DNA of 64,000 nt. Source: a virus. Shown piece by piece: positions 1-36,588 of the stretch. Position 1 is the stretch's first letter. The number at the start of each line of letters is the position of its first letter. Under the pieces are notes generated by a model. It searched no databases and had not been told where the DNA came from. It saw nothing but the letters and a program-made list of their open reading frames with translations. The translations under genes were made by a program, and so were the position numbers. Location of the stretch: positions 1-64,000 of IMG/VR virus record IMGVR_UViG_3300032180_000006, one strand, 5' to 3'.

Positions 1-618
1 GCTGGCTGCCCACGTCCACCAGTCAACTGCGCTTTTCAGTGGTTCAACGTACTTGAGGTCAGCTATCACCTGCGCAGCTAGGAAGCTGCCCAGTCCGTTA
101 AAGTGCGTCAAGGTTGTGTGTACCTGCGCCAGCGTTGGCGGTGGAATGGTACCTAGCGTTTCATTGCGTATAATTGGCGTGATTTTTTCACGTGCTTTCC
201 AGATCGGTGTCAGTACGAGTTTAGCAATGTACTCAACTTTGTCCATACTAATGCCGTTGGTGCTGACGATGTAAGCAGCGTTGAACACGTTGTTACCGCG
301 TTTCTGTTCAGCGTGCAGTGTTTTGATAAAGTCGCGTTCATTCCATGGTATAGGCCAACTCAGCATTATCAAGCTGTGCGGTAAATTCAGTAGACGCGCT
401 ACAATCATAGCAAACCAAAGATCACGTTCCTTGCTATGTGCATCGCGCCAATATTCCGCAATCCAGCGTGTGACCTTGTCCTGTTCGCGGTACACATTAC
501 AGAAGCGGTACTGCTGCAAGATAGGGTCCTTAGTCCAGGGCTTAGGTGAGTTTGATTCCTTCTTTACGTAAATCGATTGTCGTTCTCTCATAAAACTGAA
601 CAGTTCTCGCGTACGCAT
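1..618 (-). CDS. Putative DNA base hypermodification protein (5-hmdU DNA kinase helical-domain family), C-terminus off window
   Basis: No stop is reached before the window edge, so 206 codons are visible and the 3' end is missing. The visible protein has PWTKDPILQQYRFCNVYRE followed by QDKVTRWI near residues 28-56, then LWFAMIVARLLNLP near 70, and LGSFLAAQVIADLKYVEPL with SAVDWWTWAAS at the edge. I recognise this from memory as the pattern of phage and prophage proteins related to the 5-hydroxymethyluracil DNA kinase helical domain and the alpha-glutamyl/putrescinyl thymine pyrophosphorylases. Those families act after replication on hydroxymethylated and pyrophosphorylated thymine. The ATG at 618 follows the TGA of the upstream gene by two bases; a GGAG lies 13 bases upstream. 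Family membership is fairly secure; the exact chemistry is inference. The hydroxymethylase and kinase expected for a complete pathway are not in this window. Confidence 0.75.
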   Translation of the reverse strand, partial: MRTRELFSFMRERQSIYVKKESNSPKPWTKDPILQQYRFCNVYREQDKVTRWIAEYWRDAHSKERDLWFAMIVARLLNLPHSLIMLSWPIPWNERDFIKTLHAEQKRGNNVFNAAYIVSTNGISMDKVEYIAKLVLTPIWKAREKITPIIRNETLGTIPPPTLAQVHTTLTHFNGLGSFLAAQVIADLKYVEPLKSAVDWWTWAAS

Positions 619-620
619 TT

Positions 621-890
621 TCACGGTAGCTGCTCCACTTCCGTTTCAAGGTTATTTGCGGATGGCTTAGGCCATACGGGTGAGCAGTCATTTTTATGGT
701 GTACCCAGCAATGCTCAAATCTGCGTGTAGCTGGCGCGTAGTCACGCAAGGCTTGGCGAAGTGCGCTGTAGTCATCACCTGTAACATCGCGCTCAAAAGT
801 GATAACAATCTGGCGACTACGCGCACGGCGCAAACCAAGCACGACGAACATCGCCACTGCCAACACCATCAGTTGAATCAAGGTGGTCAT
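621..890 (-). CDS. Small membrane-anchored protein of unknown function
   Basis: The 89-residue product starts with a hydrophobic segment (about residues 4-20, LIQLMVLAVAMFVVLGL) followed by arginines, so it probably sits in the inner membrane with its charged C-terminal part in the cytoplasm. The remainder is mixed alpha/beta-like with HCWVHHKND near residue 60. Its start overlaps the stop of the upstream gene (ATGA), and it lies between a small gene and the hypermodification protein, so it is part of the same transcript. A longer overlapping frame (542-838) has no such features and is not used. Confidence 0.6.
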   Translation of the reverse strand: MTTLIQLMVLAVAMFVVLGLRRARSRQIVITFERDVTGDDYSALRQALRDYAPATRRFEHCWVHHKNDCSPVWPKPSANNLETEVEQLP

Positions 891-1132
891 TTTTTCGCTC
901 CGTAGTTTACTCCATCAATATATTGTGCCAACGCAGCACGTAACTCCTGTTGTTGCGCCGTGGCGATTGAGTTCTTGATTATCGGCTCAAGTTGCCCTGC
1001 AATTAAAAACAGTCGCGCACCCGCTGCCAACAGCAGTGTCGTCTTTTCTGCAATCAACTTATTCTGCGCCGCCTTCTTACCAGCGCTGCGCGTAGTCGTA
1101 GCGGATTTTTTCTGCAATTCTGTACCTCCCAT
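887..1132 (-). CDS. Small basic protein of unknown function
   Basis: I start it at the methionine of MGGTELQKKS (81 residues) and not at an upstream ATG that would read through the preceding gene. It is alanine-rich with a lysine-rich N-terminus and probably all helical (LIAEKTTLLLAAGARLFLI). It belongs to the hypermodification operon and overlaps both neighbours. No family recognised. Confidence 0.55.
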   Translation of the reverse strand: MGGTELQKKSATTTRSAGKKAAQNKLIAEKTTLLLAAGARLFLIAGQLEPIIKNSIATAQQQELRAALAQYIDGVNYGAKK

Positions 1133-1352
1133 GTAGTTGTTCTTGGTATTTAATGCGCTGTTGCTGGTCTGCTTGGTTAGCAGGCACCAGCGTACGGAAG
1201 AAATGCGACAGGTCTTCATTCACTGCTACGCGCAGCTTCTTCCCGGTAATGCTTGTCTGCGCTTCAAGTGTACTGCCCGTGCACATCCATAATGGCCCTG
1301 CACTGGGGTTAAAGTACATTTCGCCGATTTCAAATTCACTGCTTCGCTTCAT
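1077..1352 (-). CDS. Hypothetical protein in hypermodification operon
   Basis: The 91-residue product starts MKRSSEFEIGEMYFNPSAG, chosen because an upstream ATG in the frame would overlap the radical SAM gene by 100 bases. The central part reads like a short beta-rich domain (GEMYFNPSAGPLWMCTG), the end is basic. It overlaps the radical SAM gene by 17 bases and the next gene by 56, so translation is probably coupled. Unknown function. Confidence 0.55.
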   Translation of the reverse strand: MKRSSEFEIGEMYFNPSAGPLWMCTGSTLEAQTSITGKKLRVAVNEDLSHFFRTLVPANQADQQQRIKYQEQLHGRYRIAEKIRYDYAQRW

Positions 1353-2205
1353 AGGCTCCTTCAATTTGTTGTTTGCTGGCATATGGTCCGGTTGGATGCT
1401 GCACATTGGCAGGGTATGCTCCCGCATGGCAATCACACTGATTACACAGAGGCGACCTGCGATCCTTCTTCAATAATCGACGGCGGTATTCATTCATAAT
1501 AGGATGGTTCCACAACTCAAGCACCGTGCTGTCGCGCACGTTGCCGAAGTTCAGCGCGCCGTGGTAGTCCTGGCAGCACAACAACGCCTGCCCTTGCCAG
1601 TTGATGTTGAAAATACGGAACGGCTTAACGCACATCCGTTCTACAGGCTGTGCCAGCGCGGGCAGGAACTGCGGAATGTTGCCCGCTCGGTTGATCAAGC
1701 GGAAAATGCCGCTGCCGAATTCTGCTGGGTTGCTTTTGTCCAGCATATTGACTACCCGCGCATGCGGTGATAGCACAGCATACACATTACCGTTGCGCAC
1801 AATTTCCGCAGGCAGCGCAGCCAGCCACGGCATGCGCCGTTCAAACAATCCAGGGCTATAGCAGTTGATCAGTAATTGGTTAAGCCCTGCATTGTACAGA
1901 CGCATTATGTTGTGTGACCCGCGCAAGTAGTCGCCATTGGTGGCGATCATAAGGCAGGCACGCAATGCGGTACGTGCATATATGAGACATTGAATTAGAT
2001 AATCAAAATCTTTGCACGGTTCGTTGTAGATGTAGAACTCGATTCGCCCACGATAATCCAATGCCACCAATTCATGTATAATCTTTTGAAATAAACCCCA
2101 CTGCATGTACTGGTCTGGTCGTGTGTTATATGCAACAGGACAGAATGTACAACGCCGATTGCACTGTGCCGTTATCTCAATCGCAAGTGTGTTGAACAAT
2201 CTCAT
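1336..2205 (-). CDS. Radical SAM enzyme with SPASM-like C-terminus
   Basis: The 289-residue protein has the radical SAM cluster motif CNRRCTFC at residues 15-22 (CxxxCxxC) directly after an EITAQ strand, then EFYIYNEP and MIATNGDY strands of a partial TIM barrel. The C-terminal third has cysteines typical of a SPASM or twitch auxiliary iron-sulfur domain: C in RMCVKPF, CC in ALLCCQD, GNVRDSTVLELWN, and CNQCDC. It would reductively cleave S-adenosylmethionine and modify a substrate by radical chemistry. Its start overlaps the stop of the glycosyltransferase gene (ATGA), so the two are made together. Radical SAM enzymes were predicted and found in thymine hypermodification pathways of other phages, so a nucleobase side chain is the likely target; a peptide substrate cannot be excluded. 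Confidence 0.85.
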   Translation of the reverse strand: MRLFNTLAIEITAQCNRRCTFCPVAYNTRPDQYMQWGLFQKIIHELVALDYRGRIEFYIYNEPCKDFDYLIQCLIYARTALRACLMIATNGDYLRGSHNIMRLYNAGLNQLLINCYSPGLFERRMPWLAALPAEIVRNGNVYAVLSPHARVVNMLDKSNPAEFGSGIFRLINRAGNIPQFLPALAQPVERMCVKPFRIFNINWQGQALLCCQDYHGALNFGNVRDSTVLELWNHPIMNEYRRRLLKKDRRSPLCNQCDCHAGAYPANVQHPTGPYASKQQIEGAYEAKQ

Positions 2206-3083
2206 TTCTTATACGCCTTTCGCAGATTCGGGTACATGTTAGCGGCGGCAATCAAACCGCGCCAGTGGTCCACCTGCTTAAGACTGTTAAATCTGATGCG
2301 AAGTTCGCCCTGCTTACGGCTGGGGTCATTGACATTCTTCACGGCGAAGAGTGTACCATATCGCTCCATCAGTTCCTTCTGCGCTCGCAGCATGGCAGGC
2401 AGGCGTTCAAGGTACGGGCCACATCCACCGGGCATGTAGTGCCACCGTAGCGGATGTCCCCACTTGTTGATCAGCACGCGGCCATTTTCAAACAGATGCG
2501 CAGCGGTAAGCGCATAGTCTTCACCGCTGCTCTCAGTGCTTTGATTCCAGGGTAATCCCTGATTGCGCATCAACATAACTTTTCCGCACACGTAGCCAAC
2601 GTCCGTCCATTTGCGCCCGCGGAACGCCGGGTTTTCATGCGCGCTGAAACCACATAGGAATGCGCCGCGACGTTCAGCTTCTCGCATAGTGTCTAATATC
2701 ACTTTTTCAAGAAACCATTTAAAGCTGACATCTTGGTTCATGGTTTTTTGCCAGCGCTGGCGCGTAATCATTTTCTCACCGGGTTGCAGTTCAATCTCAG
2801 TGTTATGGCGATAGAATGATTTTTCTGGCATGATAAAGCCCAGCACGTTGTCATCCATCTGCAAGCACCATTCACCGCGCTTCAACAGACTGCGTGTGTA
2901 CTCGCGGGCCACGTTCAACCCGCCTTCGCTGGGCAGCACCAGTAGGTTCTTCCGTGGTACGCCATGCAGTCTGTAATCGGTTAGCTGACTAGGCCGTACT
3001 ACCAGCTTGTAATCAAAGCCTGCCAACAGTGCTGGTGTGGTGTGTGTGGTAGCCCGGTTATAGCTAGGGATAAAAATTCGCAT
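2202..3083 (-). CDS. GT-A type glycosyltransferase, TAGT/GREB1-like, candidate DNA base glycosyltransferase
   Basis: The start is the ATG of MRIFIPSYNRA because a GGAGA lies eight bases upstream; an ATG five codons earlier has none. The 293-residue protein opens with the Rossmann strand and IPSYNRA loop of GT-A glycosyltransferases, has NVAREYTRSLL near residue 60, WCLQMDDN near 70-80 in place of the DxD metal-binding motif, GYVCGKVMLMR, and SSGEDYALTAAHL near 190, where the ED pair matches the usual acceptor-side acidic motif. The arrangement fits TET-associated glycosyltransferases and their eukaryotic relative GREB1, which transfer sugars to oxidised pyrimidines in DNA. The immediate neighbours are a radical SAM enzyme and a base hypermodification protein. 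The fold is secure; DNA as acceptor is inference. Confidence 0.72.
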   Translation of the reverse strand: MRIFIPSYNRATTHTTPALLAGFDYKLVVRPSQLTDYRLHGVPRKNLLVLPSEGGLNVAREYTRSLLKRGEWCLQMDDNVLGFIMPEKSFYRHNTEIELQPGEKMITRQRWQKTMNQDVSFKWFLEKVILDTMREAERRGAFLCGFSAHENPAFRGRKWTDVGYVCGKVMLMRNQGLPWNQSTESSGEDYALTAAHLFENGRVLINKWGHPLRWHYMPGGCGPYLERLPAMLRAQKELMERYGTLFAVKNVNDPSRKQGELRIRFNSLKQVDHWRGLIAAANMYPNLRKAYKK

Positions 3084-3153: not shown

Positions 3154-3987
3154 TTAGCTCAGAGAAACCAGCCCTGACTTGACGGCGAAGCTGATGAAGC
3201 TGGCATCGGCGCCGATCTTGATGAGTTTGGGCAATGCTTCGTCAGTGGTCTTGCTGGCAAGGATGATGTCCAAGCCTTGCGCCCGTTTGGTGCCTTCACG
3301 CGCTTCGTGCTTGCGGTTCAGTACCTTGATCTTCTTGCCCGCGATGGTGGTACGCGCTTCGCCGTTGCCGCTGACAGTTTTCTTTGCAGGCTTCGCCGCT
3401 GCTTTCGCAGGCGTCGCGTTGGTGGCTTTGCCTTTCTTGGCAGGTGGTGCGGTGACGTTGGCAAACTTGGCGGGCTTAGTAGGGCTCGCCCCTGGTGCTG
3501 TCGCTTTCATTTGTAGCTCCTTTGATTGTAGAATCTTCGTCAACTGCTCTTTGGCCCTTTGACTTATTGTACATTGATCGTTCAACGGATGCAATAGCCT
3601 TTTCGCACATTCTACAATGCTGGCGTTAGGCACGGCACACAGGGCTAGATTCTGTCCGTGCGTGCTGTGTGCATCAATTTCAAGCAGCTCTACGGTGAAC
3701 GCTTTGTTAACTACGAACATCGCGCCGCGCTGTGTATACGCGGTGCGCAGGTAGGCGATACCGTTGGCATCACGGAAAACTTGGTAGACGCCTAGGTCAG
3801 TAACCTTGCGCCCGCCGGATGCCTTGACATAGCGCATCTTTTTCTGTTTGTCCGTTTTTACAATGTACCGCCCGGTTTCCTCGTTGAACAACAGGTCGCT
3901 GAGTTTGTGGTGTTTTAACAGCGAGTTCAGTTCGCGAGCATGCTTTTCGTACGCAGGTAAAGGTTTGCGCTTTGTTTTCTTTTTCAC
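3154..3987 (-). CDS. Two-part protein with C-terminal domain shared with 8661-8897; internal in-frame start
   Basis: The 277-residue product has an N-terminal domain of about 155 residues of unknown function, an Ala/Pro/Lys-rich linker (about 165-210) and a C-terminal domain that begins at GKKIKVLNRKHEAREGTKR. That last domain is closely similar to the whole 78-residue protein encoded at 8661-8897. Residue 160 is a methionine with AAAGGAG eight bases before it, so a 118-residue C-terminal product (start 3510) is probably also made. The basic character suggests nucleic acid binding, which is inference. The start overlaps the end of the upstream gene (ATGA) and a terminator follows. Confidence 0.75.
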   Translation of the reverse strand: MKKKTKRKPLPAYEKHARELNSLLKHHKLSDLLFNEETGRYIVKTDKQKKMRYVKASGGRKVTDLGVYQVFRDANGIAYLRTAYTQRGAMFVVNKAFTVELLEIDAHSTHGQNLALCAVPNASIVECAKRLLHPLNDQCTISQRAKEQLTKILQSKELQMKATAPGASPTKPAKFANVTAPPAKKGKATNATPAKAAAKPAKKTVSGNGEARTTIAGKKIKVLNRKHEAREGTKRAQGLDIILASKTTDEALPKLIKIGADASFISFAVKSGLVSLS

Positions 3988-8660: not shown

Positions 8661-8897
8661 CTACGCGGCCAGCTTAACCAGCTTGGACGCCACAGCAAAG
8701 CGGATGAAGCTGTTGTCCGCGCCGACTTTCTTCAGCTTTGGAATGGCCTTATCGGTGGTCTTGCTGGTCAGGATGATGTCCATGCCCTTCTGCCGCTTGG
8801 TACCCTTGCGAGCACCGTGTTCGCGGTTGATGACGACGATTTTCTTGCCAGTGTAACGACCAACGGAACGACGAGCAACTTTCTTTGAGTTTTTCAT
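8661..8897 (-). CDS. Small basic protein, stand-alone copy of the C-terminal domain of 3154-3987
   Basis: The 78 residues run MKNSKKVARRSVGRYTGKK then IVVINREHGARKGTKRQKG and DIILTSKTTDKAIPKL. Almost every position from GKKI to the end has an identical or similar residue in the C-terminus of 3154-3987. Very basic, so nucleic acid binding is possible. About 110 bases upstream hold a short hairpin (CACGGC/GCCGTG) and no gene. Confidence 0.65.
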   Translation of the reverse strand: MKNSKKVARRSVGRYTGKKIVVINREHGARKGTKRQKGMDIILTSKTTDKAIPKLKKVGADNSFIRFAVASKLVKLAA

Positions 8898-17993: not shown

Positions 17994-18022
17994 ATTATAA
18001 AAGCCTATTTTATAGATTGCAA
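17994..18022 (-). promoter_or_regulatory. Strong candidate promoter (P5)
   Basis: Minus strand TTGCAA, 17 bases, TATAAT. It overlaps the 3' end of 18005-18739 and would give a leader of about 155 nt for the operon that starts at 17829 and includes the polymerase. Confidence 0.6.
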
Positions 18023-18739
18023 TGGGTAAGGTTTAAGATCTGCAACGGTGCGCTGTATCTGCCAGTGATCGCCAAACAAATCCAAGGTAGATGGCGCGTA
18101 GATTCTGTTAATGCGCTTCCATGTCAACCATATCACGGCTTGAATCTGCTGCGGACTGTGCATTCTATATTCAAGTACATCGGCGACGCTGCGCACATCG
18201 CGTTCAACTTCAGCATAGTTGAAGCCCATTGTGGCAACTAATTTCAAATTGTTTACTTGACCGCACCACGCATTGACCATGTGGCCGTCGACCACTATAG
18301 GGCAATCTCTGTTCGCTGGCTCAAGTATGCAGCGATAGAAGGCGCGTGTCTTCAGGCCTTTGGTGCGTCCAAGGAAATCAACGCCTCCTAGAAAGTCATA
18401 GGCGCGCTGGCGACAGGCGTTGAACGCAGTGGTAGTGATTTCTGTGACTGGTCGCTGGCGTAAATGCCAGTACATCAACGTCGCAAGGCTGCGTAGATTT
18501 TTATGGTAATCGTTGTTCGGGCTCAAGGCTACAAACGCGGCCACGGTTGAAGACACGGTGTAACCGTAGTGATCAGCCAGCGCCAGCAGCACAGCGTTGA
18601 GGCGTTGGTAATACCCAGTGCCTGCTTCCCAGTCAATGGCATCAGCCTGCGCCAGCACCTTTAACAAGCGTGAAACCGTACCTTGCAATCTCGGTAGCGT
18701 CAATTGTCTCCCCTGCACGTAGCCTCCAGTAGATAGCAT
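18005..18739 (-). CDS. Helix-hairpin-helix DNA-glycosylase-like phage protein
   Basis: The 244-residue product has VAAFVALSPNNDYHKNLRSL near residue 65, KTRAFYRCILEP near 130 and CPIVVDGHMVNAWCG near 145. The order (a SPN or SPQ helix, a helical linker, a lysine-rich GxKTxxFY segment and VxVDxH) is that of a phage family (DUF7178 by memory) that looks distantly like HhH DNA glycosylases, to which thymine hypermodification pyrophosphorylases also belong. It could act on modified bases. The 5' end overlaps the HNH gene by 98 bases, so the real start may be an internal TTG or GTG. Confidence 0.6.
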   Translation of the reverse strand: MLSTGGYVQGRQLTLPRLQGTVSRLLKVLAQADAIDWEAGTGYYQRLNAVLLALADHYGYTVSSTVAAFVALSPNNDYHKNLRSLATLMYWHLRQRPVTEITTTAFNACRQRAYDFLGGVDFLGRTKGLKTRAFYRCILEPANRDCPIVVDGHMVNAWCGQVNNLKLVATMGFNYAEVERDVRSVADVLEYRMHSPQQIQAVIWLTWKRINRIYAPSTLDLFGDHWQIQRTVADLKPYPLQSIK

Positions 18740-30306: not shown

Positions 30307-32441
30307 TAGAACTTCTCCTTCTTCACGTTCTTCACTCCAATCGCCCGCTCCCTGTCGTACAGCGCACCGACTTCCGCGGGCTTCATCTTAACCAGCTTGG
30401 CAATGTCGCCGCGCAATACCCACAGCCGCTGATGCCCGCTTATCTCTGTGCGCACGCTGGCACCTTGGTTCGCCTGCACCAGCCCGCTCCGGCGCAATTC
30501 ACGCGCCATGCCGTTTGTCGTTACCTTTGTCTTACCGTCAGGGTCGTACAAGGCGCGCAGCTCCTCGCTGGTAAACAAGGTGTGTTTCAGTTTCAAATCA
30601 CCCAGTCGCAGCACGCGGTCGGGCTCCAGCTTCAGGCGCTGGCACCACTGGCCGAGGTCGCTCTTCCCGGCATCTATCATGTCTTTTTTACTTTGTGTGG
30701 TGGGAGCGTGCGCGCTGGGATTAAACCCTGTAAGGTCTAGGTTAAGAAGATGATGGAACAGGTAAGACGCACCGCCAGTATCAAGCCACTGGATGTATCC
30801 TTTGTAGAATTCCTCGGTCTTAGGCTCAGTACTTCGTACCTCGTGTACAAAGAACCGCCTATCCGCATCCTCGAGGAAGAAAGCATCTGGGTGATTGGAT
30901 GTGAAGTAGTAATTGATGCAATCAGGAACGGTATAACTGGGAACATACTTTGGATTCAACCTTATCGCTTTCTGCGTGATCATCGACTTCATACGATCCG
31001 CCGTGTTGCGCTTGTCGCCGCCTGTGATTTCATCCGCCATCACGAATTGCTTGTGCTCAGCCCATTCGTTGTGGGTACTGTACAGGTCGCGGTCACCAAT
31101 CTCAGTAGCATTACTGCCGTAGATTTTAAACATGGTGGTGCCTACCAGCGTCTTACCCGTGCCCTGTAGTAATCCCCACATTACAGCAGCGCTGTACAAC
31201 TTAAAGCCCGGATGTTGCAGCGGGTAAGCAAGCCACTGCTCAAACCAAGTGCGGGCAGCATGGTCAATGCCGCTGAACAGATAGTCCAGCAACTCCAACC
31301 ACGGGCGAATGGTGCTTGGGCTGCTGGTTACGGCAGGCTGCACTCCCCATCCGGGCCAGCAGTTAAAGCTGCCTGCTACAACGCGGTCAGCTCCGGGCAG
31401 GTACGTTGCTCGCACCACCTTACTGCGGTGCTTCCACTTCAGCCATTCACGCGGCGCGCTTTTCTCTGTTACCTTTACCTCATCATCCTTGCCAATCTTG
31501 TGCTCGTAATATACGCGATCGCTGTAGGCGTGGTCGGTAAAGGCACGGCAACTAAGGCGCTGCAAGGTGTCAAGGCGTACAATCAAACCCGGATCTTCTA
31601 CGTACAATACCTCCTCGTTCAGGGTAAGCAGTTCCTGCGCCGCTGCGAACTCAACCGCGTTGTGCACCACAATGTCGCTTTGGAACGCTTCCACGCCACG
31701 GTCCACTATGTAATCGTCCAGCCCGGTTTTAGCCTCGCTGGCAAGGCTGGGCAGGCGCACTATATAAGGTACGGCGCCAAGGGTCTTAAACAGCTCGCGG
31801 GCCAGCGCGTTTTCTGCCTGTACAACGTTTGGATTCGTCATCGCATCGCTGTCGTACACAATGTATACAATGCGATCCTTCCAGTCTATCCAGTTAAAGG
31901 CAGGCAGCAGCGGCAAAGTCTGCGCCTTGCTCTTAAAGCACCACACACCACCTAAGCCCATACAGGCAAGACCTTCCTTGCAGGCACAGGCAGCCTTGAT
32001 CTCACCTTCGGTTATAAATATAGGTATGGCAGTGTCGCGGGCTATTACGGGCCACGGCGCGAGGGGAGGCAGGTAAACTTCATTCAAACTCTTGGCGGGC
32101 TGCGCATAGCGCAACTGCTTGGCTGTAATGCTGACCAGCGCGTTGAATCCGCTCTGCACTTCTGCGCCTTCAAGATAGCGAAAGCGGAAGAAGGTAGTGG
32201 GTTTGCCTTGCAGGTCGAAATAAGGTATGCGAAAACCTGCCCGGTATACAGGCAAGCTGTCCAACGCTGCGCACTGCACGGCGGTAAGCGCTTGCAGCTT
32301 TAAACGCTGGGCATCCTTGGCATCAAGCCCGCTGTGCTTCAACTTTTCCAACATGGCAGCCTGCACGGAGGCAACACTGGTGAATTTACTTCGCACCGTT
32401 TTGCCTGCGGACACAGACACACCATTGCTAACAATAGGCAT
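30306..32441 (-). CDS. Replicative primase-helicase (TOPRIM-like plus SF3/DUF5906-type ATPase)
   Basis: The 711-residue protein has an N-terminal DUF3854/TOPRIM-like region with PIFITEGEIKAACACKEG near residue 145 (catalytic E), GLGGVWCF, and VYIVYDSDAMTNP near 195 (DxD). The middle and C-terminal region has VMWGLLQGTGKTLVG near 425 (Walker A), KQFVMADEITGGDKR near 460 (Walker B-like DE) and TSNHPDAFFLEDADRRFFV near 515 (sensor and arginine finger region). This layout is that of phage primase-helicases that start replication and load at the fork. It is the second or third gene of the leftward arm, next to the divergent control region. Confidence 0.88.
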   Translation of the reverse strand: MPIVSNGVSVSAGKTVRSKFTSVASVQAAMLEKLKHSGLDAKDAQRLKLQALTAVQCAALDSLPVYRAGFRIPYFDLQGKPTTFFRFRYLEGAEVQSGFNALVSITAKQLRYAQPAKSLNEVYLPPLAPWPVIARDTAIPIFITEGEIKAACACKEGLACMGLGGVWCFKSKAQTLPLLPAFNWIDWKDRIVYIVYDSDAMTNPNVVQAENALARELFKTLGAVPYIVRLPSLASEAKTGLDDYIVDRGVEAFQSDIVVHNAVEFAAAQELLTLNEEVLYVEDPGLIVRLDTLQRLSCRAFTDHAYSDRVYYEHKIGKDDEVKVTEKSAPREWLKWKHRSKVVRATYLPGADRVVAGSFNCWPGWGVQPAVTSSPSTIRPWLELLDYLFSGIDHAARTWFEQWLAYPLQHPGFKLYSAAVMWGLLQGTGKTLVGTTMFKIYGSNATEIGDRDLYSTHNEWAEHKQFVMADEITGGDKRNTADRMKSMITQKAIRLNPKYVPSYTVPDCINYYFTSNHPDAFFLEDADRRFFVHEVRSTEPKTEEFYKGYIQWLDTGGASYLFHHLLNLDLTGFNPSAHAPTTQSKKDMIDAGKSDLGQWCQRLKLEPDRVLRLGDLKLKHTLFTSEELRALYDPDGKTKVTTNGMARELRRSGLVQANQGASVRTEISGHQRLWVLRGDIAKLVKMKPAEVGALYDRERAIGVKNVKKEKF

Positions 32442-32459
32442 GGTCGCGGTGTCCTTGTA

Positions 32460-32963
32460 TTACTTGGCTGGGCTGGAAACGTTGGTTCCTACACGGTTCT
32501 TATCACCATATATAATCTGGTGCTGATACTGCTCCATCTCTCGCTCATAGGCTTCCACGCCTAGTGCCACAAGGAAGTACACAAAACTGTGTCGGCTAGG
32601 TTTGTACTTGGCTGGGTTTACCAGCGCTGCGCGGCACTGGCGCAGAAAGTCGTTGGCATGCTTAACGCCTTTAGCGCGTGCGATGGTCTGGGCTTCTTTA
32701 AACTGCGCAGGTGTAACTCTAGTAGCGCGTGGTGCGTAGTAGTGCAGTTCTTGCAGCTTATAAAGGTGCTCGTCGATGCGAATGCGCAGCTCGTCGTTGA
32801 ACTTGAGCAGCACATTGGCATTATCACCTATCTTCATATCGCTGCGGAATGGCTTTTTCTCGGGTACTAAAGGTACAACGGCGGGCGCTACTTCGGCTGT
32901 CTTCTTCGCTTTCTCTACCCACTGCTGTTGTTTGCGCTTGCTAAGCTGCGCGGATTTTGGCAC
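32460..32963 (-). CDS. Hypothetical protein, GTG start
   Basis: The 167-residue product starts GTG (MPKSAQLSKRKQQQW) with GAGGA ten bases before. Basic N-terminus, proline-rich linker, and a helical C-terminal half (ELRIRIDEHLYKLQELHYYA, FVYFLVALGVEAYEREME). It precedes the primase-helicase and might be a loader or accessory factor, which is inference from position only. Confidence 0.6.
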   Translation of the reverse strand: MPKSAQLSKRKQQQWVEKAKKTAEVAPAVVPLVPEKKPFRSDMKIGDNANVLLKFNDELRIRIDEHLYKLQELHYYAPRATRVTPAQFKEAQTIARAKGVKHANDFLRQCRAALVNPAKYKPSRHSFVYFLVALGVEAYEREMEQYQHQIIYGDKNRVGTNVSSPAK

Positions 32964-33033
32964 GTTTGCGTGTCCTCAGTTCTATAAATTGTTCGCTCCA
33001 CTTACTTACAGGTGCGGGCAAGTAGTAAAGCAT
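32941..33033 (-). CDS. Possible 30-residue peptide
   Basis: MLYYLPAPVSKWSEQFIELR plus a basic tail, overlapping the next gene by 23 bases. Ribosome binding site weak. It would be the first gene of the leftward arm. A longer frame upstream (from 33171) runs through the inverted repeat and is not credible. Confidence 0.35.
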   Translation of the reverse strand: MLYYLPAPVSKWSEQFIELRTRKRAKIRAA

Positions 33034-33067
33034 TTTATAACCCGGAAGCGCAAGTGAGAGGTTTGTA

Positions 33068-33151
33068 ATTGTACAATTTGCGCAGTGTACACACGGTAGA
33101 TTGCAGTTTTGGACATGGTAACGGTATAGTGTACGCGCAAAATTGTACAAT
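33068..33151. repeat. Imperfect inverted repeat with two ATTGTACAAT palindromes
   Basis: Left arm from 33068 (ATTGTACAATTTGCGC ... GTGTACAC) and right arm ending 33151 (its reverse complement with one extra T and a three-base gap). Each arm has the 10-bp palindrome ATTGTACAAT. Confidence 0.75.
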
Positions 33152-33181
33152 CCGCCGTGAACAAAGCGCATTACGGCAAAT

Positions 33182-33192
33182 AATGTGCCGCA
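33182..33192 (+). repeat. 11-bp iterated motif, copy 1
   Basis: AATGTGCCGCA, identical to copies at 33362-33372 (opposite strand) and 33491-33501. Confidence 0.75.
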
Positions 33193-33339
33193 AATCTCTG
33201 AAGGTGTTTGTCATATTGCGTTCGTCTAACCGGGCTGTTTACGCAGGTGCGCAGTGGTGCGCGCTCGGCACATGGGCATTTAATGCGTGTATTGTACGCG
33301 GTGTTTCGCAGTAGCGGCTGGGCATGCAGGTATAGAGTG

Positions 33340-33357
33340 CTCAGTGTATACGCTGAG
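33340..33357. promoter_or_regulatory. 18-bp near-perfect palindrome, operator candidate
   Basis: CTCAGTGTATACGCTGAG, symmetric except one base pair, in the middle of the control region. Confidence 0.5.
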
Positions 33358-33361
33358 TGCT

Positions 33362-33372
33362 TGCGGCACATT
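33362..33372 (-). repeat. 11-bp iterated motif, copy 2 (inverted)
   Basis: TGCGGCACATT, the reverse complement of AATGTGCCGCA, flanked by ATTTTATGC. Confidence 0.75.
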
Positions 33373-33490
33373 TTATGCAAAACGTGCTCAAACTCTATGT
33401 GTACAAAACACCTATTTCTTATTTACATGTATCTTTTATAAATAAATACACATATTTTCTAACAATATAGTTTGCGACCAAAAATAGCAT

Positions 33491-33501
33491 AATGTGCCGC
33501 A
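33491..33501 (+). repeat. 11-bp iterated motif, copy 3
   Basis: AATGTGCCGCA preceded by GCAT, directly before a group of ACGAT repeats. Confidence 0.75.
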
Positions 33502-33505
33502 CGAT

Positions 33506-33517
33506 ATCGTTAACGAT
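33506..33517. promoter_or_regulatory. 12-bp perfect palindrome in a cluster of ACGAT repeats
   Basis: ATCGTTAACGAT lies within ACGATATCGTTAACGATCAC and is followed by AACGATAG, four ACGAT units in about 30 bases. Operator or iteron candidate. Confidence 0.5.
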
Positions 33518-33607
33518 CACCAACGATAGTTTTCCCGACCATTTCAGTAATCTCTTTGTCACTCTCCGTTCCGAGATGCTTGCACCGCGCAGACCTGCAC
33601 TGCCATA

Positions 33608-33835
33608 ATGCCGCGCATGGCGAAAGCAAACTCGCTTCCCAGTTTCCCGTTCGTTGATGACAGAGTTCATCCTCTCGGTGGACGAGACTTCCGGAGAATG
33701 AGCGTCAAGGAACTGCGTGGTCTATTGCCCGATAATCTCTACATCCTGAACGGCACGGAAAGCGAAGGTGCGCTGGCCGTGCTCATGTCGTTTGACACGT
33801 TCGTGCATCTACAGCAGCTATTGCAGAACAGATGA
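33608..33835 (+). CDS. Small Phd/prevent-host-death-like protein
   Basis: The 75-residue product (or 72 from the second ATG, MAKANSLPSFPF) has RRMSVKELRGLLPDNLYILN then GALAVLMSFDTFVHLQQLLQ, the helix-strand pattern of Phd-type antitoxins. No toxin lies next to it. First gene of the rightward arm; as Phd proteins are autorepressors it might bind the palindromes upstream, which is inference. No clear ribosome binding site. Confidence 0.5.
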   Translation: MPRMAKANSLPSFPFVDDRVHPLGGRDFRRMSVKELRGLLPDNLYILNGTESEGALAVLMSFDTFVHLQQLLQNR

Positions 33836-33839
33836 CACT

Positions 33840-34094
33840 ATGCAGCGCCACGATCTTAGCAGCGTTGGATATTCATGGATTCGACGGGGGAACTCTGGGT
33901 TCGTGGTGCTGTGTAGCGTCATTCTGCTGGCAGGTTGTGCAAAGCGTAATACTAGCGTGCACGTACCGCACGTGAATGACACGATAGAGATTCGCAATGT
34001 ACATGGTGCCTGCACTACGTATTGCTTAGTGCACCATGTTCAGTTTGATGCGCGAACAGGTCGTCAGGCTATTGTGTGTAAAGATGCTAACTGA
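33840..34094 (+). CDS. Small lipoprotein
   Basis: Start at MQRHDLSSVGYSWIRRGNS; FVVLCSVILLAGCAKR is a signal sequence with an LAGC lipobox, so the mature 50-odd residues would be lipid-anchored. The tail has two cysteines (CTTYCLVHHVQF). Small lipoproteins near late genes can be outer-membrane spanins or superinfection-exclusion proteins; neither is shown here. Confidence 0.55.
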   Translation: MQRHDLSSVGYSWIRRGNSGFVVLCSVILLAGCAKRNTSVHVPHVNDTIEIRNVHGACTTYCLVHHVQFDARTGRQAIVCKDAN

Positions 34095-34108
34095 AAGGAG
34101 GGGCGATT

Positions 34109-34459
34109 ATGCGTGTTTTTGCATTACTTGATAGAGTGCTAAAAAACAAATGCCAAAAACAACGTAGTGCCGATGGTGGCTGGCGCGGAGCAATTCGCGA
34201 TGGCTGCCTAGGTTCAAAGCAGGGCTGGCTTCGGCTGGCCCTGTTCCATTCCCTTCAGTGGTTATTGACACGCGCTCCCCGAGCAGCGTTTTGCGCCGCT
34301 GCTTTTCTGGGCGTGTCTGCGGTGAGCCGAGCGTGTGGCGTGGTGAACCATGCGCCCGGTTCACCTACAAAGATTCCAGCGCGTATGATGCGCGGAGAGA
34401 TTCCGCGATGCCTTCTTCCGCGTGCTTCGGCCATGAAACAAAGCGCTGGAACCTATTAA
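34109..34459 (+). CDS. Uncertain reading frame between lipoprotein and terminase
   Basis: The ATG has AAAGGAGGGG just upstream, which is excellent, and the first 30 residues (MRVFALLDRVLKNKCQKQR) look plausible. After that the frame runs through two hairpins and is arginine/alanine-rich. A neighbouring frame (34168-34456) is also open and looks as protein-like, so a frameshift may be hidden here. Confidence 0.35.
   Translation: MRVFALLDRVLKNKCQKQRSADGGWRGAIRDGCLGSKQGWLRLALFHSLQWLLTRAPRAAFCAAAFLGVSAVSRACGVVNHAPGSPTKIPARMMRGEIPRCLLPRASAMKQSAGTY
34220..34243 (+). other. UUCG tetraloop hairpin
   Basis: CAGGGCTGGC-TTCG-GCTGGCCCTG forms a 10-bp stem with two G-T wobbles closed by the very stable UUCG loop. 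No T run follows, so it is more a structural or processing element than a terminator. Confidence 0.6.
34283..34306 (+). terminator. Possible weak terminator before the terminase genes
   Basis: GCAGCG pairs with CGCTGC over an 8-base loop and is followed by TTTT. Confidence 0.4.
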
Positions 34460-35208
34460 TGCCAAAGAAACCTAAAATCGTTACGAACGACCCGCTGGTG
34501 GCAGCGACAAAGCAGCGCCATATAAAGCGAATGAAGAAGCAATCGCGTGAAGCGACGAAGCGTAATCTACCTGCCAAGGGCTTGGAGTATGGCACCACAC
34601 GCGAGGCACGGCGCACGTTGCCCGCTGAAAGCTGTAAGCACTTGCCGGGTCGCAATTCAAACATCAACATAAGAAACATCACAGCAGCGCAGAAGAAAGC
34701 TGTCGCCGCGGAATGGGTTAAGGACTTCAACTTTAGCGCGACCGCCGTGCGCGCAGATATTAAGCGTGGCACGCTGTGGAACTTGTTGCATCGTGATGCT
34801 GAGTTCATGGGTATTGTACGTGAACTGAGCGGCGCGATCGCAGAAGAAGTAGGTATGGACGCTAAGGAAACGCTCTTGGAAGCCAGCCGTGTCGCGCGAG
34901 GCAACATACTAGACTACTTTGAATGCGACGATGATGGTGATTTGAAGTTAACGCTTGCTTCTGTAACACGCGGTAAGATGGCCGCTGTGCGCAGCATTGA
35001 GTATGAGGAATGCTGGCAAGGACGAGGTGAGGATCGTGTACTCGTTCGCAAACCCAGAATTACCATGCACAACAAGAATGAGGCGTTGAAACTTGTAGCG
35101 CAGATCAACAAGATGTTGGGCGATACTCTGCCCGGTGGAGCTCCAGGTTCTATGCCTCCGCCCGCCATTATCGTTAAGTTCACTAACGACGAGGTAGTAA
35201 AACTGTAG
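34408..35208 (+). CDS. Terminase small subunit
   Basis: Start set at 34408 (MPSSACFGHETKRWNLL) because GGAGAG lies eight bases upstream; the alternative ATG at 34459 (MPKKPKIVTND) has a weaker site. The protein (266 or 249 residues) has WVKDFNFSATAVRADIKRGT, a helix-turn-helix for DNA recognition, then MDAKETLLEASRVARGNILD and a beta hairpin DYFECDDDGDLKLTLASVTR and HNKNEALKLVAQINKMLGD, as in Terminase_2-type small subunits. It recognises phage DNA and stimulates the large subunit. Its stop is directly followed by the large subunit start. Confidence 0.82.
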   Translation: MPSSACFGHETKRWNLLMPKKPKIVTNDPLVAATKQRHIKRMKKQSREATKRNLPAKGLEYGTTREARRTLPAESCKHLPGRNSNINIRNITAAQKKAVAAEWVKDFNFSATAVRADIKRGTLWNLLHRDAEFMGIVRELSGAIAEEVGMDAKETLLEASRVARGNILDYFECDDDGDLKLTLASVTRGKMAAVRSIEYEECWQGRGEDRVLVRKPRITMHNKNEALKLVAQINKMLGDTLPGGAPGSMPPPAIIVKFTNDEVVKL

Positions 35209-36588
35209 ATGGCAGCACTCGCACAACCCGTTATCAACTACAACCAAGTCCAAGGCTTGGAGATAGTGTACGCACCAGCGTTTAAGCCGTTGTTCCGTGC
35301 GCGGCGCTATAAGGTTCGCTGGGGAGGACGTGGTGGTGCGAAGAGTTGGAGTTTTGCCCGTGCCTTGATTACCATCGCGCATGGCAAGCGTGTTCGCATA
35401 TTGTGCACGCGTGAATTGCAGAACAGTATCAAGGATAGTGTGCACCGCTTGCTCGTAGACCAGATTGACGCGCTGGGTCTGCGCCCGTGGTTCATCATAA
35501 TGCAAAGTGGTATTGTGAGCACGGTAACAGGCAGTGAGTTCATATTCAAAGGGCTGCGTCACAACAGCAATGAAATCAAATCTACCGAAGGCATTGACAT
35601 AGTTTGGGTTGAGGAGGCACAGCTTGTCAGTGATGAAAGCTGGGAAACGCTCATACCCACGATTCGTAAGGAGAACAGCGAAATTTGGATCAGCTTCAAT
35701 GCTATCGAGAAGACTGATGCTACTTATCGTCGTTTTATACCTCAATGCCATACGTGCGATATTGATTTTGAAACTGTTGCTCTGGCCCATGTACACGAAG
35801 ATGCACATGCTGCTGAAGAGAAACCGCACAAGGTAAGTTACCCGCCTCCTGACTGCGATGTACAGAAAGTAAACTGGAACGCGAACCCGTGGTTCCCCAA
35901 AGTTCTGAACGAAGAACGCCTGTATATGCTGAAGAAAGACCCGGTCGCTTATGCGCATGTATGGGAAGGCAGTACGCGCATTATCGGCGATGCGGTAATC
36001 TTTAAGAATCACTACGTTATAGAACCGTTTGATACGCCAATGCATCCCAGTCCGCGGTTCTTCCATGGCTTGGATTTTGGCTTCGCCGATGACCCGTGCG
36101 CTTTGACGCGCAGTTTCATTACTACCAACGACGATAGAAGCGAAGACCTTTGGATTGACCGCGAGTGCTACCACCACCACTTGGAACTAGACCAGATGCC
36201 CGCGAAGTTCGACGCGGAAATGCCGACTGCGCGGAAGTGGCCTATTAAGGCGGACAACAGCCGACCGGAAAGCATCAAGTTCTTAAAGCGTCGTGGATTT
36301 CAAATCAGCGCAGCGGAGAAGTGGGCAGGCAGCATAGAGGACGGCATTGCTTTCCTCAAAGCCTTCCGGATGATACACATCCACCCGCGCTGTGAGCACC
36401 ATGCTATTGAAGCACGGCTGTACAGCTACAAGATTGACAAGAAGCAGATCAAGGAAGATGGTAAGCCCGTAATTCTACCTGAGCCCGTGGATGCGTGGAA
36501 CCACTGCTGGGATGCCGACCGCTATGGGCTTGACGGTCACATCCACAAAGGCGCGAGTCAAATCTGGGCTAACTTAGGGAGGAAGTAA
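35209..36588 (+). CDS. Terminase large subunit
   Basis: The 459-residue protein has Walker A GGRGGAKSWS near residue 43, TRELQNSIKDSVHRLL near 66, GIDIVWVEEAQ near 130 (Walker B and catalytic Glu), WISFNAIEKTDATYRRFI (coupling motif), and a nuclease domain with HGLDFGFADDP near 285, IKADNSRPESI near 345 and VDAWNHCWDADRYGLD near 430 giving the three acids. This is the Terminase_3/PBSX-like class. It cuts concatemers and drives DNA into the prohead. Confidence 0.95.
   Translation: MAALAQPVINYNQVQGLEIVYAPAFKPLFRARRYKVRWGGRGGAKSWSFARALITIAHGKRVRILCTRELQNSIKDSVHRLLVDQIDALGLRPWFIIMQSGIVSTVTGSEFIFKGLRHNSNEIKSTEGIDIVWVEEAQLVSDESWETLIPTIRKENSEIWISFNAIEKTDATYRRFIPQCHTCDIDFETVALAHVHEDAHAAEEKPHKVSYPPPDCDVQKVNWNANPWFPKVLNEERLYMLKKDPVAYAHVWEGSTRIIGDAVIFKNHYVIEPFDTPMHPSPRFFHGLDFGFADDPCALTRSFITTNDDRSEDLWIDRECYHHHLELDQMPAKFDAEMPTARKWPIKADNSRPESIKFLKRRGFQISAAEKWAGSIEDGIAFLKAFRMIHIHPRCEHHAIEARLYSYKIDKKQIKEDGKPVILPEPVDAWNHCWDADRYGLDGHIHKGASQIWANLGRK

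What the first reader, a model, noticed from the sequence alone, without database searches (positions are those of the whole stretch)
1..3083. Base hypermodification cluster: TAGT-like glycosyltransferase + radical SAM/SPASM + hypermodification protein
Three enzymes with family links to DNA base modification are encoded as one translationally coupled unit with three small unknown genes between them. TAGT-type glycosyltransferases are known with TET-like oxygenases on oxidised pyrimidines, while radical SAM enzymes and the hmdU-kinase-helical family are known in thymine hypermodification. Here both appear together, with no TET-like gene in view. This predicts a sugar-decorated, radically modified thymine or cytosine, a combination I do not know as described. 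The small genes may be new pathway parts. The left end of the cluster is cut by the window.
Basis: partly seen in the sequence, partly recalled or inferred. Interest (0 to 1): 0.85.

Follow-up and report, generated by a model that had tools for sequence, protein, structure and literature searches.

The report
Phage cassette predicted to make sugar-thymine
An uncultured bacterial virus carries a gene set that should replace thymine in its DNA by a sugar-bearing version, using a sugar-adding enzyme where its known relatives use a phosphate-adding one, plus a radical enzyme that probably alters the sugar; this would be a new recipe for disguising viral DNA, but no chemistry has been measured yet.

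Summary
On the minus strand at 1-3083 lie a TAGT-like GT-A glycosyltransferase (GT; PF20691 just above cut-off), a radical SAM/SPASM protein (rSAM) whose only close solved relative is BtrN, and a strong HMUDK_hel (aGPT-Pplase1) protein. The left cut is solved: the 70,264-bp record has a 144-bp terminal overlap, so the operon continues at its right end with the rest of HMUDK_hel, a 62-aa ORF, a dUMP-hydroxymethylase-like enzyme (42% to phage M6) and a YfbR-like nucleotidase. No 5-hmdU DNA kinase, aGPT-Pplase2, PLP enzyme or TET was found.

In 93 related loci with HMUDK_hel plus hydroxymethylase, kinase and glycosyltransferase are nearly exclusive: 30 kinase only, 54 GT only, 3 both, 6 neither. 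No kinase locus has a Pfam-supported GT (0/33, against 43/60 of the others; p=6e-13). BtrN-like genes occur in 15, all with a GT or candidate GT.

Best reading: 5-hmU is made before replication, then glycosylated in DNA by the GT, with HMUDK_hel (glycosylase-like fold) presenting the base; the rSAM enzyme probably oxidises or epimerises the sugar. A new variant of thymidine hypermodification; the chemistry is untested.

The parts
2202..3083 (-). TAGT-like GT-A glycosyltransferase (293 aa; DDN motif D77-D78, D189)
   Evidence: PF20691 30.2 bits vs 27.5 cut-off; PHROG beta-glucosyl-HMC-alpha-glucosyltransferase E 4e-6; AlphaFold model matches GT-A enzymes in the PDB; 57% identical to the GT directly before HMUDK_hel in L015
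1336..2205 (-). BtrN-like radical SAM enzyme with SPASM/twitch domain (C15-x3-C19-x2-C22; auxiliary cluster C192, C210, C254, C257)
   Evidence: BtrN 4m7s E 1e-21, family profile E 2e-32; SPASM PF13186; 12-row alignment A4
1077..1352 (-). small ORF (91 aa), no family, no relatives found
887..1132 (-). small ORF (81 aa), no Pfam family, no relatives found
621..890 (-). small ORF (89 aa) with a hydrophobic N-terminus, no relatives found
1..618 (-). N-terminal two thirds of HMUDK_hel / aGPT-Pplase1 protein; C-terminus at record 70264-69848, outside the window
   Evidence: PF18723 113 bits and 71 bits for the C-terminal part; joined over the 144-bp terminal overlap; 31-37% identical to M6 gp55 and kin
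3154..3510 (-). small basic protein just upstream of the GT; relatives lie upstream of the modification genes in other phages (start codon inferred)
   Evidence: L011, 126 bits

Best explanation
A thymidine-hypermodification operon in which a DNA glycosyltransferase replaces the usual 5-hmdU DNA kinase. (1) The TS-family enzyme hydroxymethylates dUMP to 5-hmdUMP, while the YfbR-like HD nucleotidase probably trims competing or host nucleotides. (2) After phosphorylation, 5-hmdUTP is built into DNA by the phage polymerase. (3) HMUDK_hel, whose fold resembles DNA glycosylases, binds DNA and presents 5-hmU; in M6-type phages it serves the kinase, here the GT. (4) The TAGT-like GT-A enzyme joins a sugar to the 5-hydroxymethyl oxygen, giving a base-J-like glycosyl-hmU. 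(5) The BtrN-like radical SAM enzyme oxidises (or epimerises) a hydroxyl of that sugar, on DNA or on its sugar-nucleotide donor. Likely purpose: protection from restriction. Shown: gene content, family membership, predicted folds, absence of the kinase, kinase/GT exclusivity, rSAM next to GT. Inferred: every catalytic step, the order of steps and the sugar.
For: Operon completed across the record ends. Hydroxymethylase 42-46% identical to M6-type enzymes, with catalytic Cys and Asn at the base-recognition position. HMUDK_hel aligns over 98% of its length with M6 gp55, which lies directly behind the kinase in M6, Pam3, FP1, Sonora and others. No kinase, aGPT-Pplase2, PLP enzyme or M6-type rSAM in this genome by tblastn or HMM. 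In 93 loci kinase and GT are near-exclusive ([[3,30],[54,6]], p=4e-15; Pfam-supported GT families only, [[0,33],[43,17]], p=6e-13). At least 15 switches on the HMUDK_hel tree; 7 independent well-supported pairs, none going the same way. TAGT relatives are annotated as DNA alpha-glucosyltransferases of T-even-like phages, and TAGT is assigned the second glucosylation of hmdC in T6-like phages (PMC13390438). The rSAM enzyme is BtrN-like with all four auxiliary cysteines; BtrN oxidises a cyclitol hydroxyl (PMC9012708). In nearly every rSAM locus the gene is the next pathway gene to a GT, even where the pair lies 5 kb from HMUDK_hel (L067). The HMUDK_hel model (pLDDT 94) has an 8-oxoguanine DNA glycosylase as top PDB match, prob 0.99 though E 0.18.
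Against: No chemistry was measured. The TAGT match is weak and confined to the N-terminal third; the C-terminal half is divergent and was modelled with pLDDT 41-90. rSAM-GT co-occurrence is not significant once kinase loci are set aside (p=0.32), so 'acts on the sugar' rests on adjacency and on BtrN chemistry. Two of the four GT families counted (GT39, F16) have no Pfam match. With only 7 independent contrasts the phylogeny-corrected test is modest (median p 0.03 for any GT, 0.06 strict). HMUDK_hel keeps an invariant Asp (D199) after its helix-hairpin-helix, so it may be an enzyme rather than a presenter. MW202897 has GT + hydroxymethylase + HD but no HMUDK_hel in the 9.7 kb read, so HMUDK_hel is not always needed. 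The operon join relies on a 144-bp overlap with one mismatch.
Confidence: 0.62

Rival explanations
1. The glycosyl-hmU cassette is right, but the radical SAM enzyme acts on the base: it oxidises 5-hydroxymethyl to 5-formyl on part of the hmU, or acts before glycosylation, and is not a sugar-modifying enzyme.
For: BtrN-type chemistry is alcohol oxidation and 5-hmU carries an alcohol; rSAM-GT association is not significant beyond kinase exclusion.
Against: In nearly all rSAM loci the gene is the next pathway gene to a GT, across several GT families, while HMUDK_hel-hydroxymethylase loci mostly lack it; no rSAM gene was seen in the methyltransferase-type loci or beside any strong kinase hit.
Confidence: 0.18
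2. The GT makes glycosyl-hmU and the rSAM gene belongs to something else (a carried metabolic gene), so the only modification is plain glucosyl- or other hexosyl-hmU, as in base J.
For: Most GT-type loci have no rSAM gene nearby (41 of 54 GT-only loci); plain TAGT loci are the commonest type (32 of 93).
Against: The rSAM gene overlaps the GT gene here and is tightly packed with GT genes in relatives of several lineages; catalytic and auxiliary cysteines are conserved.
Confidence: 0.12
3. M6-like amino-acid hypermodification continues here with a host-encoded or unrecognised kinase, and the GT acts on a host surface or wall polymer.
For: HMUDK_hel and hydroxymethylase are of the M6 kind.
Against: aGPT-Pplase2, PLP enzyme and M6-type rSAM are also missing; the kinase accompanies aGPT-Pplase2 in 17 of 17 loci; TAGT relatives are DNA-base glucosyltransferases of T-even phages.
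Confidence: 0.05

Closest known systems
Thymidine hypermodification cluster of Pseudomonas phage M6 (5-(2-aminoethyl)dU; Mesyanzhinovviridae)
   Same: Same core in the same order: HMUDK_hel/aGPT-Pplase1 (33% identical), dUMP hydroxymethylase (42%), HD nucleotidase.
   Different: No 5-hmdU DNA kinase, aGPT-Pplase2, PLP enzyme, M6-type rSAM or Nmad5-like protein; a GT and a BtrN-like rSAM stand in their place.
Pelagiphage clusters with TS, aG/PT-PPlase1, 5'-deoxynucleotidase and putative beta-glucosyl-HMC-alpha-glucosyltransferase (PMC9599517)
   Same: GT beside the same core; reported as thymidine hypermodification.
   Different: No radical SAM gene reported in the passages read, and the mutual exclusion of GT and kinase was not stated there.
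Base J (beta-D-glucosyl-hydroxymethyluracil) of kinetoplastids
   Same: A sugar on 5-hmU in DNA is the predicted product.
   Different: Base J starts from thymine oxidised in DNA by JBP/TET enzymes (PMC4111573); here 5-hmU would be made as a nucleotide and no TET/JBP gene exists.
T-even alpha-glucosyltransferases / TAGT on 5-hmC
   Same: GT family; acts on 5-hydroxymethylpyrimidine DNA.
   Different: Acceptor predicted to be hmU; no dCMP hydroxymethylase signature.
Bacillus phage SP-15 (glucosylated, phosphoglucuronated dihydroxypentyluracil)
   Same: Precedent for sugars on a hypermodified thymine in phage DNA (PMC5977210).
   Different: SP-15 builds a dihydroxypentyl side chain and carries a large teichuronic-acid-like sugar cluster.
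BtrN, radical SAM dehydrogenase of butirosin biosynthesis
   Same: Only strong solved relative (E 2e-32 by profile); same CxxxCxxC and four auxiliary cysteines.
   Different: BtrN acts on free 2-deoxy-scyllo-inosamine; substrate here unknown, identity low.

Membership tests
5-hmdU-based thymidine hypermodification (M6/ViI type) | dUMP hydroxymethylase of the TS family | tested here: met
   42% identity over 99% of M6 enzyme, catalytic Cys, Asn at base-recognition site; activity not measured
5-hmdU-based thymidine hypermodification (M6/ViI type) | HMUDK_hel / aGPT-Pplase1 protein | tested here: met
   PF18723 113 and 71 bits for the two parts
5-hmdU-based thymidine hypermodification (M6/ViI type) | P-loop 5-hmdU DNA kinase | tested here: not met
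   no tblastn or HMM hit in the whole record; Walker A motifs found are not in kinase-like ORFs
5-hmdU-based thymidine hypermodification (M6/ViI type) | amino-acid or amine transferase branch (aGPT-Pplase2, PLP enzyme, M6-type rSAM) | tested here: not met
   none found
5-hmdU-based thymidine hypermodification (M6/ViI type) | modified thymidine in virion DNA | not testable with these tools
   metagenomic record; needs LC-MS
TAGT (PF20691) | profile score above the curated cut-off | tested here: met
   30.2 bits vs 27.5, but only residues 1-85; nearest relative L015 scores 25.8, just below
TAGT (PF20691) | GT-A fold with DxD-type metal site | tested here: met
   D77-D78 and D189 invariant in 19 sequences; model matches GT-A enzymes at E 2e-5 or weaker, TM about 0.4-0.5
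TAGT (PF20691) | association with a TET/JBP oxygenase | tested here: not met
   no Tet_JBP match in the record
BtrN-like radical SAM dehydrogenases | CxxxCxxC cluster plus four-cysteine auxiliary cluster of the twitch domain | tested here: met
   C15, C19, C22; C192, C210, C254, C257 align with BtrN
BtrN-like radical SAM dehydrogenases | two-electron oxidation of a secondary alcohol | not testable with these tools
   needs enzyme assay
TET/JBP-based base J pathway | TET/JBP dioxygenase | tested here: not met

The most novel reading that the evidence does not exclude
HMUDK_hel is a general 5-hmU-presenting module with exchangeable decorators (kinase, several glycosyltransferase families, perhaps a methyltransferase), and in this branch a BtrN-like radical SAM enzyme remodels a sugar already attached to DNA, giving an oxidised or epimerised glycosyl-hmU not seen before.
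Probability: 0.33. Interest if true: 0.85.

Novelty: new variant of a known kind. Interest (0 to 1): 0.62.

Why it matters
Thymidine hypermodification is known mainly as a phosphorylation-then-amine route. The near-exclusive choice between a DNA kinase and a glycosyltransferase beside the same two core genes, in dozens of uncultured phages, points to a second large branch that would make base-J-like sugar-thymines in bacterial viruses. It assigns a testable common role to HMUDK_hel, predicts modified bases from gene content alone, and adds a radical SAM step whose closest relative works on sugar-like alcohols. One cultured phage, Brevibacterium phage LuckyBarnes, carries the GT version, so the central claim can be tested now.

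Tried and rejected
Scans of viral contigs with the single rSAM and GT sequences found no usable relatives (L003 is a paired-TAGT/ParB locus before a terminase), so alignments of HMUDK_hel and hydroxymethylase were used instead. The GT found nothing in the phage collection by tblastn or in PDB sequences. A search for the kinase, aGPT-Pplase2, PLP, M6-type rSAM, Nmad5 and FAD enzymes in this genome was negative. TET/JBP was searched and not found. The small ORFs were tested as pathway parts and dropped for lack of relatives. DUF7178 (18005-18739) was considered as a second glycosylase-like protein; it matched only DUF7178 and was not pursued. A cytosine substrate was considered and rejected on the Asn/Asp position. 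Statistical support for rSAM with GT independent of kinase loss was tested and not found. Three papers that bear directly on these pathways (10.1093/nar/gkt573, 10.1093/nar/gkab781, PMC11472151) are not held, so prior description there cannot be excluded.
Full report
What is there. The window is bases 1-64000 of a 70,264-bp virus record. Genes 3083 to 1 on the minus strand are: a 293-aa GT, a 289-aa rSAM/SPASM protein overlapping it by 4 bases, three small overlapping ORFs, and HMUDK_hel cut by the edge. The record ends repeat each other for 144 bases with one mismatch, so the molecule reads as a circle or a permuted complete genome. Across the join the HMUDK_hel ORF runs on without a stop to 296-298 aa. 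It is followed by a 62-aa ORF (record 69851-69663), a 357-aa TS-family enzyme (69675-68602) and a YfbR-like HD protein (68675-67986). The rest of the genome is an ordinary contractile-tailed phage with portal, capsid, sheath, baseplate, primase, PolA-type polymerase and helicase.

What each part is. HMUDK_hel scores 113 bits for its N-terminal part and aligns over 98% with gp55 of phage M6. The TS-family enzyme is 42-46% identical to the hydroxymethylases of M6-like phages. It keeps the catalytic PCN motif and an Asn at the base-recognition position, where the CMP hydroxymethylase matched has Asp. This favours dUMP; that it hydroxymethylates rather than methylates is inferred from its family and neighbours. 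The rSAM protein matches BtrN (E 1e-21; family profile 2e-32, with the next solved structures 26 orders of magnitude weaker), including the CxxxCxxC motif and the four auxiliary-cluster cysteines. The GT is a marginal TAGT member by Pfam, has the DD metal motif and a GT-A fold by prediction, and its nearest relative (57% identity) sits directly before HMUDK_hel in L015.

What is missing. In M6, Pam3, Rhizobium phage RHph_TM26, Bordetella phage FP1, Sonora, Epa43 and Simon the 5-hmdU DNA kinase lies just before HMUDK_hel. In this genome no kinase, aGPT-Pplase2, PLP enzyme, M6-type rSAM, Nmad5 or FAD enzyme was found by tblastn, by profiles of those proteins or by Walker-A inspection, and no TET/JBP.

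A pattern in relatives. Scans with HMUDK_hel and hydroxymethylase alignments gave L011-L163. After removing near-duplicates, 93 loci had both genes and at least 6 kb of context. Thirty have the kinase only, 54 a GT family only, 3 both (all the unconfirmed F16 family) and 6 neither. Counting only Pfam-supported GT families (TAGT and GT group 1), 0 of 33 kinase loci and 43 of 60 kinase-less loci have one (p=6e-13). aGPT-Pplase2 is found only with the kinase (17 of 17). Because loci are related, I built a HMUDK_hel tree: the kinase/GT state changes at least 15 times, and 7 independent pairs on well-supported branches never go the same way (median p 0.03; strict GT 0.06). Five of the six 'neither' loci carry a methyltransferase-fold gene just before HMUDK_hel; the sixth, L067, has a TAGT-rSAM pair about 5 kb away. 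The window's HMUDK_hel groups with L011 (58%) and L014, both with TAGT and rSAM.

The radical SAM step. BtrN-like genes occur in 15 of the 93 loci, always with a GT or candidate GT, and never beside a strong kinase hit (two carry a weak kinase-profile hit). In all but two of the distinct rSAM loci (L086, L088) the gene is the next pathway gene to a GT, whichever GT family is present. However, the rSAM-GT association is not significant within kinase-less loci (p=0.32). BtrN removes two electrons from a cyclitol hydroxyl (PMC9012708). I therefore favour oxidation or epimerisation of the sugar, but oxidation of the hydroxymethyl group is a live rival.

HMUDK_hel. A model of the L011 protein (pLDDT 94) has as its best PDB match an 8-oxoguanine DNA glycosylase (probability 0.99, E 0.18, TM 0.42-0.54), with another DNA glycosylase and a queuine-salvage enzyme below it. 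Together with its occurrence beside kinase, GT or methyltransferase, this suggests a base-binding module that presents 5-hmU to exchangeable enzymes. The E-values are weak, and an invariant Asp (D199) leaves room for a catalytic role.

Known and new. M6-type hypermodification through phosphorylated 5-hmdU is established (PMC6449724). T4 beta-GT can glucosylate 5-hmU in vitro, and glycosylated hmU in some phages has been suggested (PMC4111573). [quoted passage not shown] its hydroxymethylase has the Asn of dUMP enzymes. In the held library I found no statement that GT and kinase exclude each other, and no BtrN-like rSAM in such a cluster. The key papers of 2013 and 2021 are not held, so this is not proof of absence.

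Verdict. Real, and more interesting after checking than as first described, but every catalytic step is inferred. Confidence 0.62 in the glycosyl-hmU model with rSAM acting on the sugar; about 0.8-0.9 that some sugar is placed on hmU by this cassette.

Noticed in passing
L151, L155, L158, L160, L163 (gene directly before HMUDK_hel, e.g. L160:8026-8886): A methyltransferase-fold gene (Methyltransf_23) takes the place of kinase or GT, perhaps giving an O-methylated 5-hmU.
   Followed up: partly
L055:9036-9992 and about ten relatives (family F16): A roughly 315-aa family with no Pfam match sits in the GT slot before HMUDK_hel; possibly an undescribed GT-B glycosyltransferase.
   Followed up: partly
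L165 (Brevibacterium phage LuckyBarnes NC_047851, record 31993-36008): Cultured phage with hydroxymethylase, two TAGT genes and HMUDK_hel, no kinase in the stretch read: an isolate on which the model can be tested.
   Followed up: partly
window 3154-3510 and 8661-8897, minus strand: Two paralogous small basic proteins (both with a stretch like NR-HxAR-GTKR); relatives lie upstream of the modification genes in other phages. Function unknown.
   Followed up: partly
L103:6283-7017, L099, L112, L116: NDP-sugar-type nucleotidyltransferase genes beside TAGT and HMUDK_hel, suggesting phage-made sugar donors in some branches.
   Followed up: no
L166 (MW202897): TAGT, pyrimidine hydroxymethylase and HD gene in a row, without HMUDK_hel in the stretch read.
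   Followed up: no
window 18005-18739, minus strand: DUF7178 protein among the replication genes; function unknown.
   Followed up: no
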